Source: Zonotrichia leucophrys gambelii (lineage: Eukaryota; Chordata; Aves; Passeriformes; Passerellidae). Taken from it: a stretch of 64,000 bases of DNA. Positions 30,895 to 64,000 of the stretch are shown piece by piece (the stretch's first letter is position 1; each line of letters starts with the position of its first letter). The position numbers and the translations under genes were made by a program. Location: assembly GCF_028769735.1 (NCBI RefSeq), contig NC_088171.1:94286912-94350911 (forward strand), in the 5' to 3' direction. The notes beneath the pieces are model-generated. The model saw only the letters and a list, made by a program, of their open reading frames with translations. It did no database searches and was not told the DNA's origin.

Positions 30895-31104
30895 TCCTCT
30901 CCTCTCCTCTCCTCTCCTCTCCTCTCCTCTCCTCTCCTCTCCTCTCCTCTCCTCTCCTCTCCTCTCCTCTCCTCTCCTCTCCTCTCCTCTCCTCTCCTCT
31001 CCTCTCCTCTCCTCTCCTCTCCTCTCCTCTCCTCTCCTCTCCTCTCCTCTCCTCTCCTCTCCTCTCCTCTCCTCTCCTCTCCTCTCCTCTCCTCTCCTCT
31101 CCTC
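30895..31104. repeat. (TCCTC)n microsatellite, 42 perfect copies
   Basis: The tract is exactly 210 bp, counted as 42 uninterrupted TCCTC units. CTGG lies on both sides (30891-30894 and 31105-31108). The plus strand is pure pyrimidine and the minus strand pure purine. The unit contains no stop codon in any frame, so long artificial frames run through it, with Ser-Ser-Pro-Leu-Leu repeats on one strand and Arg-Arg-Gly-Glu-Glu on the other. These are not genes. The lack of any interruption points to recent expansion and probable length polymorphism. Polypurine-polypyrimidine mirror tracts of this kind can adopt triplex DNA. Confidence 0.98.
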
Positions 31105-31164: not shown

Positions 31165-31478
31165 AGTGGAAGGGCAGGTAGAGTTCTCTTCTCTCTTGTG
31201 ACCAGAACAGGAGCCAAGGGAATGGCCTGAAGTTGTGTCAGGGGAGGGTTAGGCTGGATAGTAGAAAAAGGTTCTTCCGCCAGAGGGTGGTTGGGCACTA
31301 GAACAGGCTCCCCAGACAACTGGTAACAGCACCAAGCCTGACAGGGCTCAAGAAGGACTTGGACAATCCTCTCAGGAACATGGTAAAATTCTTGGGGATG
31401 GTCCTGAGCAGAACTAAGAGTTCTAAGAGACTTGATGATCCTTGTGGGTCCCTTCCAATTCAGAATATTCTGTAATTT
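31165..31478 (+). mobile_element. CR1 LINE, 5'-truncated 3' end, plus strand
   Basis: In CR1 order I see TGTGACCAGAACAGGAGCCA, GGAATGGCCTGAAGTTGTGT, GTTAGGCTGGATA, TTCTTCCGCCAGAGGGTGGT, GGGCACTAGAACAGGCTCCC, TCAAGAAGGACTTGGA, then CTTGATGATCCTTGTGGGTC and CCCTTCCAATTCAGAATATTCTGTAA at the 3' end. This is the C-terminal and 3' UTR part of CR1, truncated at the 5' side. It begins within about 60-70 bp of the TCCTC array, and the few tens of bases between them could be more of the element. No functional reverse transcriptase remains. Confidence 0.9.
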
Positions 31479-59700: not shown

Positions 59701-60829
59701 GCATAACATAGCTGCTGTCTTTTTTTCCTTTCTTCTCGGTATTTCTGGAAAATATTGTCTATGTGAGACTATCAGACAAGTATAGTTTTTTCTTTTTTAT
59801 CCCTCTGTTTCTTGTACAGGAACAAGAACCTTGTATTTAAGTTAGGATCATAAAAATAAGAAGTCCAATCAGAAGATTGTATTTTAATCCAAAAATCCAT
59901 AAAGAAATTTTATCTCTTAGGAGAAAGAAGCCTTTAATTTTAAAGTTAAAATTATAACAGAAGATTTACAGTTAGAAATAATAGATTTTTATATTAAAGC
60001 TAAGCTGAGAAATGATTGAAAGCTAGAGTGCTTAAAGCTTCTTAGACCTCTCTCTGCCATCTATCTTCACCCTAACATGGTTATGAAATGTGAATACCTA
60101 AGATTTCTTAGCTCTTATATCTAAGCAAAAATACTGGGAAAAGAATGTCTAGAACCCCAGCTGCCAAAGCCCAGTGCTCTTTGCAGCCAGGCATCAGTCT
60201 GGAGTACAGCTTTAGTGGTCTTGATGGGTGAATTCCATATGGGAAGACATGTGTGTTGCTGTTGCTTGATTGATCAACCTTTGGCACCACTGGTCTCCTG
60301 GGTGTGGCTGATTCTCTCTCAGGACCTGGCTGGGCTGGACGCACAGCTCTGAGCTGGCCCTGCCTGTTACTCTGGGACGGATGACAAAGACTCTCCCTTG
60401 TGGGCTATGCAGTTTTCAAACCTCTATGTTTTCCGACATCTTTGTGGGATCCATCATTGGGAGCACACATGCACAGCTATCTCTCTGCTTTTGCAGAGGC
60501 AGTCAGTATTATTGCCCAGATGTCCCAGTGCCTGTGAGAAATAATTACATGGTTGAAAAGAATCAGGGTGCAGCTTTTTGTCAATAAGACCACGTGAGGA
60601 TGGCAGGGAAAGGCAATATTTCAAGAGGTCTACTTTTGTTCAGGGCTCTTCCCCATGGGTTGTCAGTGTGATGCACAGACCCAAGTTTCAGCTGGGTGTG
60701 CCGTCAGTCATGAGGGCATGGTGGCAACCATGTAGTACCACGGAGGTGGCAATGTTGAGGAAGGTCTTCTTTTGGGGTTAGCAAGAAGCATGTGCTCAAT
60801 TGCCTCCAGTGAATGACTAATTTCAGTGG

Positions 60830-60856
60830 TCTGTTTGTCTGTTTGTCTGTTTGTCT
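60830..60856. repeat. (TCTGTTTG)n microsatellite
   Basis: Three full TCTGTTTG units plus a partial one, without mismatch. Confidence 0.9.
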
Positions 60857-60859
60857 CCA

Positions 60860-62375
60860 GCTTACAGCAGCTCATTTTGTCTTGTGCCATGTATGAACAG
60901 CACATGGGAAATTGATTAATATGTTGAGATCTATCTCAACAAAGGAGGCCCAGGTAAAAATGTCACAAAAGTGTTACACTCACATTTTTGGCTTTTCATT
61001 TTGGACTTCGTTATTCCAAACCAACCTGCTATTTGCAGCATTTGAAAGACAGTCCTGTGCCCACTGTGGCGAGGGTTCTGTGGATGACTAGCCTTATGAG
61101 GATGTATCTTGGGGATGGACTTGGATTCTTTTCCACAGAAAACTTTCATTGCCAAAGACTGAAACTCCTCAGAAAGGAGCTTCGTCCCTGTCTCACAGAC
61201 TTTAAGACTAAAGTAAGATATTTGAAGTAGTTTTGCCGCTCTACAAGTAGCAGAAAAAAATTTTACAATTGTCACAAACAAGAAATGGCATGAACAGCAT
61301 CAAGAACTTCTTGAAAAAAGGAGGTCTTTTCTTCAGACCAAAATATGAATTTGAAACTTGATTCTGTGATGGTAATAATATGCTATAAAATCCAAGATGT
61401 GAATCATTAAAAACCACAATTAACGATGATGCAGTCCTCAAAAAGGAGAGATACAACAATAGTAATTTTGAATAATAGTTTTAAAATGACAAAAATCAAT
61501 GAATACTAATATGTGTAGTAAAAAAACCTCAACTGAATTAGCTGACAAAAAGTGAACAAACGGCATCACGCCATGGCTACAGAAAAGCTTTTGTATAAAG
61601 TAAACCAGCAAGAATACAAATGAGAAACTGCCAGTATGTTTTGTGTAAAGAATAAGATGAAGTATCCCGAACTGTGTCAATTATTAAAATTAAAGGCTCA
61701 AACTTTGACATATGATCTTGAAATCATAAATTGCACTTTCAAAGAGCAGTGTCAGACACTCTAATCTTCCAAGTCGCTTTAAACAGGAGATAAAATTTGT
61801 AAACAAGAGCACTTTGTTGAAACTTTCAACAGATCAAAGTGTAACCTTAGACTTAATAAGAAATAATAAATGCTGTTAAAGTCTAACAGTGGGGAAAGAT
61901 GCGTGCTTAGATGAGCTGCCAGTAAACACTTAGTGAGAAATGATAGATACACGACTGAACTGTTACTGTAACTGAACATTTGAATCAAAAAGGCTATTAT
62001 TGCACAAATCAACAATCCCAATGAACTGGTTTTCCTACCTATCTGCATCACTGAATATTGGTCTTAAATGCTGGACAAAATTTGGTTATGAGTGCTGAAA
62101 TACACTGCCTGCATGCAGAGGGCACATACAGGCACTCAAATATCTGAGACATTTCCCCAGCTCATTGCAAATGATTTCCACATAGGTCAGCCTGGTTTAT
62201 TTCCATTGTGGTTCACTGGGGATGATTCAGGTGTTTTGTGTTTTCAAACCAAGCAAAATCTTGGATAATATAGATTTGTCCACTCGACTGACTGGGTAAC
62301 TCTTTGGACTCATTAAAATGAAAATATTTGGTGACTATTCCTGACAAAAACCAACATGGAAATGAAACAAAAAAC
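60860..62375. other. Non-coding DNA upstream of the L1-clade remnant
   Basis: AT-rich. This is where the upstream part of an L1-type second open reading frame would lie. I could find only a faint piece near 62148-62165 (FPQLI, compare the 'P-x-L-I-x-x-D-Q' region of L1 reverse transcriptases) and nothing identifiable as endonuclease, so the element is probably truncated or too decayed to read here. Confidence 0.4.
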
Positions 62376-62379
62376 CCCT

Positions 62380-63170
62380 CCAAACCCTCACACTCCTCAC
62401 TTTGGAAAGACCTTCATAAAAATTGGATTAAAAATATTCTGTAATATCCTGACCAGGTCTGTACATACTAGCAATTTAAACTCGCCCTTTTTAAAATGAC
62501 ACCAGGGAGCTAGACGAGGCTGTCCATTATCCTCTTTTCTTTTTGCAATTGTAATGGAACATTTAGCCTCATTTTTTTCAGCAACAAAGAATTGCTTCAA
62601 GGAATGAAAATTGGAAACTCCATAAATTTCAGTTCATTGTATGCAGATGACATATTGATTTGCTCCTGTAATCCTGGTCATAATCTGCCCATAATCCTGC
62701 AAACAGTGGACTGGTTTTACATTACCCCTGCCTTCTTTGTAGCTACAGTGATCAAGCCTGTTTTCTTAAAATGAATGTGCTGCTGCAGAACCTAGTCAAC
62801 AAAGTATGACCTGATGAGACAGGATAATGCTAGATACCTTGAGATAATTATATGTGAAGCTACCATCAACAGAAAACTAAAACCCTCTCTTCCCTGAGTG
62901 GAGTGGGAATGGCTCTATGTATGTCCTTAATTTTCTTCAAACTTCATTTAGAACTATAAAACCAATGAATATTATAGATCTCTCTCTCTTACTAGGCATT
63001 TCTAGTTTGAACAAGTGAGAGATTTGAAGTCTGTTCCTTAAGTGTTGTAATCATTGGTTAGCTTGTAAAAGGTGGGTCAACTTCAAAACATTTTGAGGTA
63101 TCTCATATTAAAATTTCAGTTCATTATGCTTTGGATGGCTGTTGCTGCAGAACTGAGATACTATTGCTGT
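62380..63170 (+). pseudogene. Decayed L1-clade LINE reverse transcriptase
   Basis: Motifs of an L1-clade (L1/Tx1-like) reverse transcriptase appear in order. HFGKTFIKIG is at about 62398-62427. RRGCPLSSFLFAIVMEHLAS begins at 62512 (compare the L1 block R-Q-G-C-P-L-S-P-L-L-F). MKIGNSINFSSLYADDILI has the catalytic YADD at 62640-62651. RYLEIII begins at 62832 (compare 'YLGI'). LKFQFIMLW-AVAAELRYY lies at 63108-63170 (compare 'LP-F-LYY-A'). The first two are in one frame. The last three share a second frame, 190 and about 275 bases apart, close to the spacing in intact L1 proteins. Stops interrupt the frame and a frameshift lies near 62590-62610, so it is dead. The R-G-C-P-L-S signature excludes CR1, whose equivalent is G-x-P-Q-G-S-x-L-G-P. 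Endonuclease and 3' UTR were not found. Confidence 0.75.
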
Positions 63171-63174
63171 AGTA

Positions 63175-64000
63175 AGTGTTACGCATAGAAAGAAATTATA
63201 ATGACAAAACCTGTATGCTGAAATTACTGGTAGTTACCTGAGAACAAAAACTCTAGTTGTGGAGATGACTGAAAAAATGTAATGTGTTTTTCTTTTTTTT
63301 TTATTTACTCCTTGAGAAACTCTCAGAGTGAATTCTCAGATCTCTGTCTAATTATTTAAAAGAGCTTGAAAGATTGGAACAGATACCCAAAATTTGGTGA
63401 CTCTTTCCAAATTCCAAATATCACATATGTTAAGGTGCTCAGCAATTACACCGGTCTTGTCCATTGTTTTGCTGTCAAACATAATTAAAAGTGAATTTTT
63501 CAGCTGTACATCATACAAGCAGACTACACAATGTTATATTAGAAAGGGATTGTTGCACAGATATATTGTCAAATTATTTCTTTTCTACTACTTAACTCTC
63601 AAATTAGATTATTTTAGCAGAACCTGAGTTAAAAATGGAGCTTTAATTTTTAGCATAGGTTTGCTCAGTTTGGAATAAGACTCAATAGTGACTCATTCCA
63701 AATATATATTGATTTTCTTTAATATATTACACAGGTTATAATTAATTCTTCAAAGAATAGCTTCGTTTCAGACAAATTTGTCATTTAACTGTCATAAAAT
63801 ATACATACCATAAAACACTAGTGTGTGACGGAGTATCCTAAATTAGCTATTTGAAAGGAGAGTGACAAAATGGAAAATTGACACAAATGACTTCTGCTCC
63901 CAAGTTTTTAATTTAATATCAGCTGGACTACCTACCTGCTTTTTACTAATTGCACTCACACAGGAAAATAGTACTGCCTTCTGAATATATCACACTGAAA
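63175..64000. other. Non-coding AT-rich DNA
   Basis: No recognisable feature. It may include the decayed C-terminal end and 3' UTR of the L1-clade element, but I cannot show this. Confidence 0.45.

What the first reader, a model, noticed from the sequence alone, without database searches (positions are those of the whole stretch)
62380..63170. L1-clade reverse transcriptase fossil in a bird-like genome
Five motifs of an L1/Tx1-type reverse transcriptase occur collinearly: palm RRGCPLS, catalytic YADD, RYLEI, LKFQF and an upstream HFGKTFIKIG. RRGCP and YADD are about 42 codons apart, as in L1. The last three motifs share one frame despite intervening stops. Bird genomes are dominated by CR1 and have almost no L1, so this is either a relic from the amniote ancestor or a horizontally acquired lineage.
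Basis: partly seen in the sequence, partly recalled or inferred. Interest (0 to 1): 0.75.

Follow-up and report, generated by a model that had tools for sequence, protein, structure and literature searches.

The report
Decayed L1 retrotransposon relic in bird
This is the broken remnant of a long-dead L1-type jumping gene in a bird-like genome; it is real, but relics of this kind are already known from birds, so it is mostly ordinary.

Summary
A frameshift-tolerant comparison with fish-type L1 ORF2 proteins scores 88.4 bits at 62398-62717: 105 profile columns, 41 identities, 2 stops, 3 frame breaks. Reverse-complement and reversed controls reach 22.6 and 21.2, 100 shuffles at most 30.9. The core scores 48.6 with mammalian L1 but 24.9, 19.6 and 15.4 with R2, ERV and CR1, so it is L1-clade. 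A C-terminal piece at 63700-63798 extends it (0 of 400 shuffles); a linker piece at 61684-61852 is only suggestive (10 of 400). RYLEI is weak and LKFQF unsupported. In the bird-sized genome (1.124 Gb) this stretch has no second DNA match. Of 30 loci fetched with an L1 core protein, 11 including this one are L1 relics, 12 R2, 7 CR1; the 11 are all broken and mostly dissimilar. This fits an old relic better than a recent horizontal arrival; orthology was not testable. Ivancevic 2018 reports L1 RT fragments in all 60 bird genomes analysed, so interest is low.

The parts
62398..62717 (+). core of an L1-type ORF2 reverse transcriptase relic, from HFGKTFIKIG through RRGCPLS to YADD and beyond; 2 stops and 3 frame breaks
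   Evidence: 88.4 bits, profile columns 622-726 of 1263, 41 of 105 identities; hmmsearch E 2.6e-9 and 2.8e-5; 0 of 100 shuffles reach it
62640..62651 (+). catalytic YADD motif (RT motif C)
   Evidence: SSLYADDIL aligned to klsLYADDll
62814..62858 (+). RYLEI stretch aligned to the kYLGvni motif; weak
   Evidence: 13.6 bits at diagonal offset -7; 100 shuffles mean 9.9, max 16.0
63543..63581 (+). short C-terminal-domain match, supportive only because it shares the diagonal of the next part
   Evidence: 15.7 bits, columns 1049-1061, diagonal offset -145
63700..63798 (+). C-terminal part of ORF2 just before the cysteine motif
   Evidence: 23.2 bits, columns 1102-1134, diagonal offset -147; 0 of 400 shuffles reach it in a band of +-200 nt, 0 of 100 without a band
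61684..61852 (+). possible linker between endonuclease and RT, collinear with the core; suggestive only
   Evidence: 19.0 bits at diagonal offset -39 plus an overlapping 16.4-bit piece at -47; 10 of 400 shuffles reach the first in a band of +-150 nt, 12 of 100 without a band

Best explanation
A dead copy of an L1-clade LINE. An L1 element of non-mammalian type, active in an ancestor of this bird, inserted here; the usual LINE route is target-primed reverse transcription by the element's own ORF2 protein (established for L1, not shown here). The copy then gathered stops, frame breaks and deletions without constraint, so that only the best-conserved parts of ORF2 can still be recognised. Shown: L1-clade identity, decay, no second DNA match, ten further broken L1 relics in the genome. 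Inferred: old vertical inheritance, lack of present function, the insertion mechanism.
For: L1 profile 88.4 bits against at most 24.9 for R2, ERV or CR1; collinear C-terminal piece; only itself at DNA level; 11 of 30 fetched loci are L1-best and all 11 are broken; a query from the part after the RT core gives 10 places at E<=0.01, one of them in the locus of L056 (not classified further); L1 RT fragments reported in all 60 bird genomes analysed; 137 L1 and 12 L1-Tx1 pre-amniote fossils reported in human (PMC9004415).
Against: Age is not measured: no orthologue could be sought in another bird. No endonuclease part beyond chance (294 of 400 shuffles as good). The L1 ORF1 family PF02994 has no match in the genome at E<=1. 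LKFQF failed. Pfam RVT_1 stays below its cut-off on the pieces, and the protein search of one frame found nothing at E<=1. The linker score lies within control maxima of 19.4-20.9.
Confidence: 0.9

Rival explanations
1. A later, horizontally acquired L1 lineage that entered this bird's ancestors and died out.
For: Closer to fish-type than to mammal-type L1 (best single protein 91.9 against 55.8 bits); [quoted passage not shown]
Against: No second DNA match; the window's relic is 18-37% identical to the other ten and the relics do not form one clade in a weakly supported tree; no intact L1 among the 30 classified loci. The reference set holds no identified reptile L1, so likeness to fish-type L1 does not point to transfer.
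Confidence: 0.07
2. The relic was kept for a regulatory use (exapted), as argued for some ancient transposon fossils.
For: Frith 2022 argues for exaptation of ancient conserved TE fossils, L1 among the types (abstract, section 10).
Against: No conservation data could be obtained here; decay with stops, frame breaks and deletions needs no constraint.
Confidence: 0.05
3. Chance resemblance, or a fragment of CR1 or R2.
For: Pfam RVT_1 matches of the two pieces are below cut-off (13.9 and 11.7 bits against 29.6); nothing at E<=1 in the protein search of one frame; the R2 profile scores 24.9 bits, above its 20 shuffles (max 18.5), as any RT might.
Against: 88.4 bits against controls of 21-31; much better with L1 than with CR1 and R2 profiles from the same genome.
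Confidence: 0.01

Closest known systems
L1 RT fragments in bird genomes (Ivancevic 2018, PMC6036668)
   Same: Degraded L1 pieces with a recognisable RT domain and no full-length copies
   Different: Nothing in kind that I can show; this is one located example with its extent and its kin in the genome described
Fish-type L1 ORF2 proteins (set, for example P0201, P0155, P0205, P0131)
   Same: Up to 42 of 103 identities over the RT core (P0189, P0141), same order and spacing of parts
   Different: Those are open frames; this one is broken and only partly recognisable
Pre-amniote L1 protein fossils in human (Frith 2022, PMC9004415)
   Same: Very old L1 ORF2 fragments found by sensitive translated comparison
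   Different: Age here is not established by orthology
Human LINE-1 ORF2p (PDB 8c8j, 8sxt, 8uw3, 9k6g)
   Same: Best PDB match of the first-frame piece, E 0.07
   Different: More distant than fish-type L1 (mammal-type profile 48.6 against 88.4 bits)
CR1 of the same genome
   Same: Also a LINE reverse transcriptase
   Different: Core scores 15.4 bits with the CR1 profile, at shuffle level (20 shuffles, mean 14.6, max 16.3)

Membership tests
L1 clade of LINEs | RT core more similar to L1 ORF2 than to other clades | tested here: met
   88.4 bits L1 (fish type), 48.6 L1 (mammal type), 24.9 R2, 19.6 ERV, 15.4 CR1; RTE, Tx1 and other clades not compared
L1 clade of LINEs | RT motif B of the type QGCPLSPLLF and motif C of the type LYADD/LFADD at L1 spacing | tested here: met
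   RRGCPLSSFLF and SLYADD, 42.7 codons apart, aligned to profile columns 659-704
L1 clade of LINEs | ORF2 C-terminal domain with cysteine motif | tested here: inconclusive
   the part just before the cysteine motif is found at 63700-63798; the motif itself is not resolved
L1 clade of LINEs | N-terminal endonuclease domain | tested here: inconclusive
   no match beyond chance, 294 of 400 shuffles as good; the copy may be truncated or too decayed
L1 clade of LINEs | ORF1 protein (Transposase_22) | tested here: inconclusive
   PF02994 has no match in the genome at E<=1; a decayed ORF1 would escape, and not every L1 ORF1 need match this family (recalled)
L1 clade of LINEs | target-site duplication and 3' tail | not tested
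   the ends of the element could not be placed
CR1 | RT core best matched by CR1 (GVPQGSVLGP, FADDTKL) | tested here: not met
   15.4 bits, shuffle level; CR1 motifs seen for example in L020 and L022
R2 | RT core best matched by R2 (GVKQGDPLSPLLF, AFADD) | tested here: not met
   24.9 bits against 88.4 for L1 (R2 profile of two sequences); R2 motifs seen in L011
Tx1 subclade | closer to Tx1 than to other L1 | not tested

The most novel reading that the evidence does not exclude
The insertion predates the split of birds and crocodilians, or even of amniotes, and belongs to a set of several distinct old L1 lineages whose relics still lie in bird genomes, so that L1 diversity in the archosaur ancestor could be reconstructed from them; this copy might be conserved for a regulatory role.
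Probability: 0.15. Interest if true: 0.4.

Novelty: new member of a known kind. Interest (0 to 1): 0.2.

Why it matters
It fits vertical inheritance and later extinction of L1 in the line to birds, rather than simple absence of L1. A frameshift-tolerant profile finds such relics where ordinary searches are weak: Pfam scored this one below cut-off, and one of the best-preserved relics ranked at E 0.05 in the ordinary genome search (L061). That makes a census of L1 relics across birds and an orthology test practicable.

Tried and rejected
Pfam on the read-through pieces gave only sub-threshold RVT_1, plus one unrelated chance hit. PDB search of a 261-residue read-through gave chance hits, as did the YADD piece (best hit EB1). 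A protein search of one frame with X at stops: 883 candidates, none at E<=1. A looser alignment setting appeared to align 59778-63921 with 134 bits, but its reverse-complement and reversed controls reached 103.8 and 96.8, so it was rejected. Endonuclease search upstream: chance level. L1 ORF1 family in the genome: none. A 1013-residue L1 query of the genome listed 45 places at 24-30% identity; those whose active-site stretch I printed were R2-like or CR1-like, so short core queries were used instead. A FastTree tree of profile columns 601-800 puts the relics with L1 rather than with CR1 or R2, which served as outgroup, but supports are low and branches long; no sub-lineage is claimed.

Rows dropped: of the 120 proteins listed the main profile used 24 (900 residues or more), the earlier one 84 (600 or more), the tree 30; searches list only the best 120 of 1441 and of 1254. 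Of 62 matches the 30 fetched loci were classified; the matches (84; 126; 10) were not fetched or classified. The bands used (150 and 200 nt) were chosen after seeing the offsets.

Full report
What was checked. The finding names five strings at 62380-63170 as motifs of an L1-type reverse transcriptase. All five are on the + strand. HFGKTFIKIG and RRGCPLS share one frame; YADD, RYLEI and LKFQF share another. RRGCPLS and YADD start 128 nt apart.

Is it more than chance. A profile from 84 of the 120 proteins listed was run over all six frames of the window with stops as X. Above the inclusion threshold it matched only here: 28.6 bits (E 2.6e-9, profile 308-366) and 15.3 bits (E 2.8e-5, profile 367-411), directly consecutive in the profile and one frame break apart; the next listed piece has 2.8 bits, E 0.16, and begins at about 63000. 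A second profile (24 proteins of 900 residues or more, 1263 columns) and a frameshift-tolerant local alignment of my own gave 88.4 bits at 62398-62717, columns 622-726, 41 of 105 identities, 2 stops and 3 frame breaks; reverse complement and reversed sequence of the same 8 kb gave 22.6 and 21.2. A hundred dinucleotide shuffles of the stretch gave a mean of 16.4 and a maximum of 30.9. Over the window in overlapping pieces on both strands it is the highest score of any of four profiles; the median for the L1 profile is 22.0 over 22 searches.

How far it reaches. Of 338 ungapped matches of 11 bits or more between 60000 and 65500, the two core pieces rank first and second; third and fourth are 23.2 bits at 63700-63798 (columns 1102-1134) and 19.0 bits at 61684-61776 (columns 394-424), both within 150 nt of the diagonal of the core. 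Control sequences in that call reach 19.4-20.9 bits, so 23.2 stands out and 19.0 does not by score alone. In a band round the diagonal none of 400 shuffles reaches the first and 10 of 400 reach the second; the sum of the best two pieces is reached by 1 (downstream) and 20 (upstream) of 400. Without a band, 0 of 100 and 12 of 100 shuffles reach them. So the C-terminal part is well supported and the linker only suggestive. An endonuclease part is not detectable (294 of 400). RYLEI sits at the right spacing but is weak; LKFQF is out of register and is dropped.

What it is. On the core the fish-type L1 profile gives 88.4 bits, mammal-type L1 48.6, R2 24.9, ERV 19.6 and CR1 15.4; the non-L1 profiles come from this same genome, CR1 from 12 frames, R2 from 2, ERV from 5. 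Twenty shuffles reach at most 21.1 (L1), 19.9 (mammal-type L1), 18.5 (R2), 21.5 (ERV) and 16.3 (CR1), so R2 is a little above its shuffles, as a distant RT might be. Single proteins: best fish-type P0201 91.9, best mammal-type P0037 55.8 bits. Nearness to reptile L1 is therefore untested, as are Tx1 and RTE.

The genome. The assembly has 1.124 Gb in 3789 contigs, and the window lies on a 153.5 Mb contig. The RT frames I looked at are CR1, R2 and ERV-like. The stretch 62340-63240 has no other DNA match; that search skips very common words, so this does not prove rarity. An L1 core protein listed 62 places at E<=10; the 30 loci cut out were all classified: 11 L1 (with this one), 12 R2, 7 CR1. 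The 11 L1 loci lie on five contigs (C1, C3, C5, C9, C18), score 60.5-157.4 bits, and have 0-7 stops and frame breaks in the aligned part; the one without a stop, L044, has four frame breaks. L068 has a CR1 copy elsewhere in its 3 kb, hence its CR1 score of 119.5 over the whole locus and 17.8 round the match. Protein identity of the window's relic to the other ten is 18-37% over 27-101 shared columns; among all relic pairs with 50 or more shared columns it is at most 36%; one pair with few shared columns, L044 and L061, has 14 of 26. Identity of the window's relic to fish-type proteins is up to 41% (42 of 103); 30 fish-type proteins among themselves have a median of 56% in those columns. A query from the part after the RT core gave 10 places at E<=0.01, one of them in the locus of L056, so the genome probably holds more than 11 relics; these were not classified.

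How it most likely works. It does not work any more. It is a dead LINE copy, put there by target-primed reverse transcription (inferred from the family), later broken by substitutions, frame breaks and a net loss of about 140 nt between core (offsets -4 and -6) and C-terminus (offset -147) relative to the profile.

Old or acquired. No second DNA match, no intact L1 among the classified loci, several dissimilar relics on different contigs: this is what old, extinct lineages leave. A recent burst after horizontal transfer would leave similar copies. Neither orthology nor age could be measured here, so this remains an inference.

What is known. Ivancevic 2018 (PMC6036668; section 9 read; passages; start of abstract in a listing) states that the 60 bird genomes analysed lack full-length L1 but that every bird species bears L1 fragments with recognisable RT domains. 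Frith 2022 (PMC9004415; outline and abstract; passages; sections 8 and 10) reports 137 L1 and 12 L1-Tx1 pre-amniote fossils in human besides older ones. Gao 2017 (PMC5486457; passages) finds only CR1, R2 and one RTE among frame-keeping LINEs of five birds, and LINEs other than CR1 at 0.03-0.05% of the genomes. PMC8665684 was seen in passages only and adds nothing on bird L1. Hence the finding is a real new example of a known kind, of low general interest.

Noticed in passing
window 30895-31104: Perfect tandem array of TCCTC, 42 copies, near a CR1 fragment on the + strand whose match ends near 31385 (70.0 bits).
   Followed up: no
window about 10472, - strand: A second CR1 fragment, 55.6 bits.
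   Followed up: no
L061 (G000:C5:38275605-38278760) and L056 (G000:C1:99574857-99578069): The two highest-scoring L1 relics among the 30 classified loci (138.3 and 157.4 bits); L061 ranked low in the ordinary search (E 0.05).
   Followed up: partly
L011, L013, L046-L048, L052-L055, L057, L058, L062-L064: Many R2-type copies on small contigs, some with long open frames (837 residues in L011), which may mean recent R2 activity. Some of these loci are the same place found twice.
   Followed up: no
G000:C31 (3.1 Mb contig): Many RT matches on one short contig; perhaps part of a W chromosome (guess).
   Followed up: no
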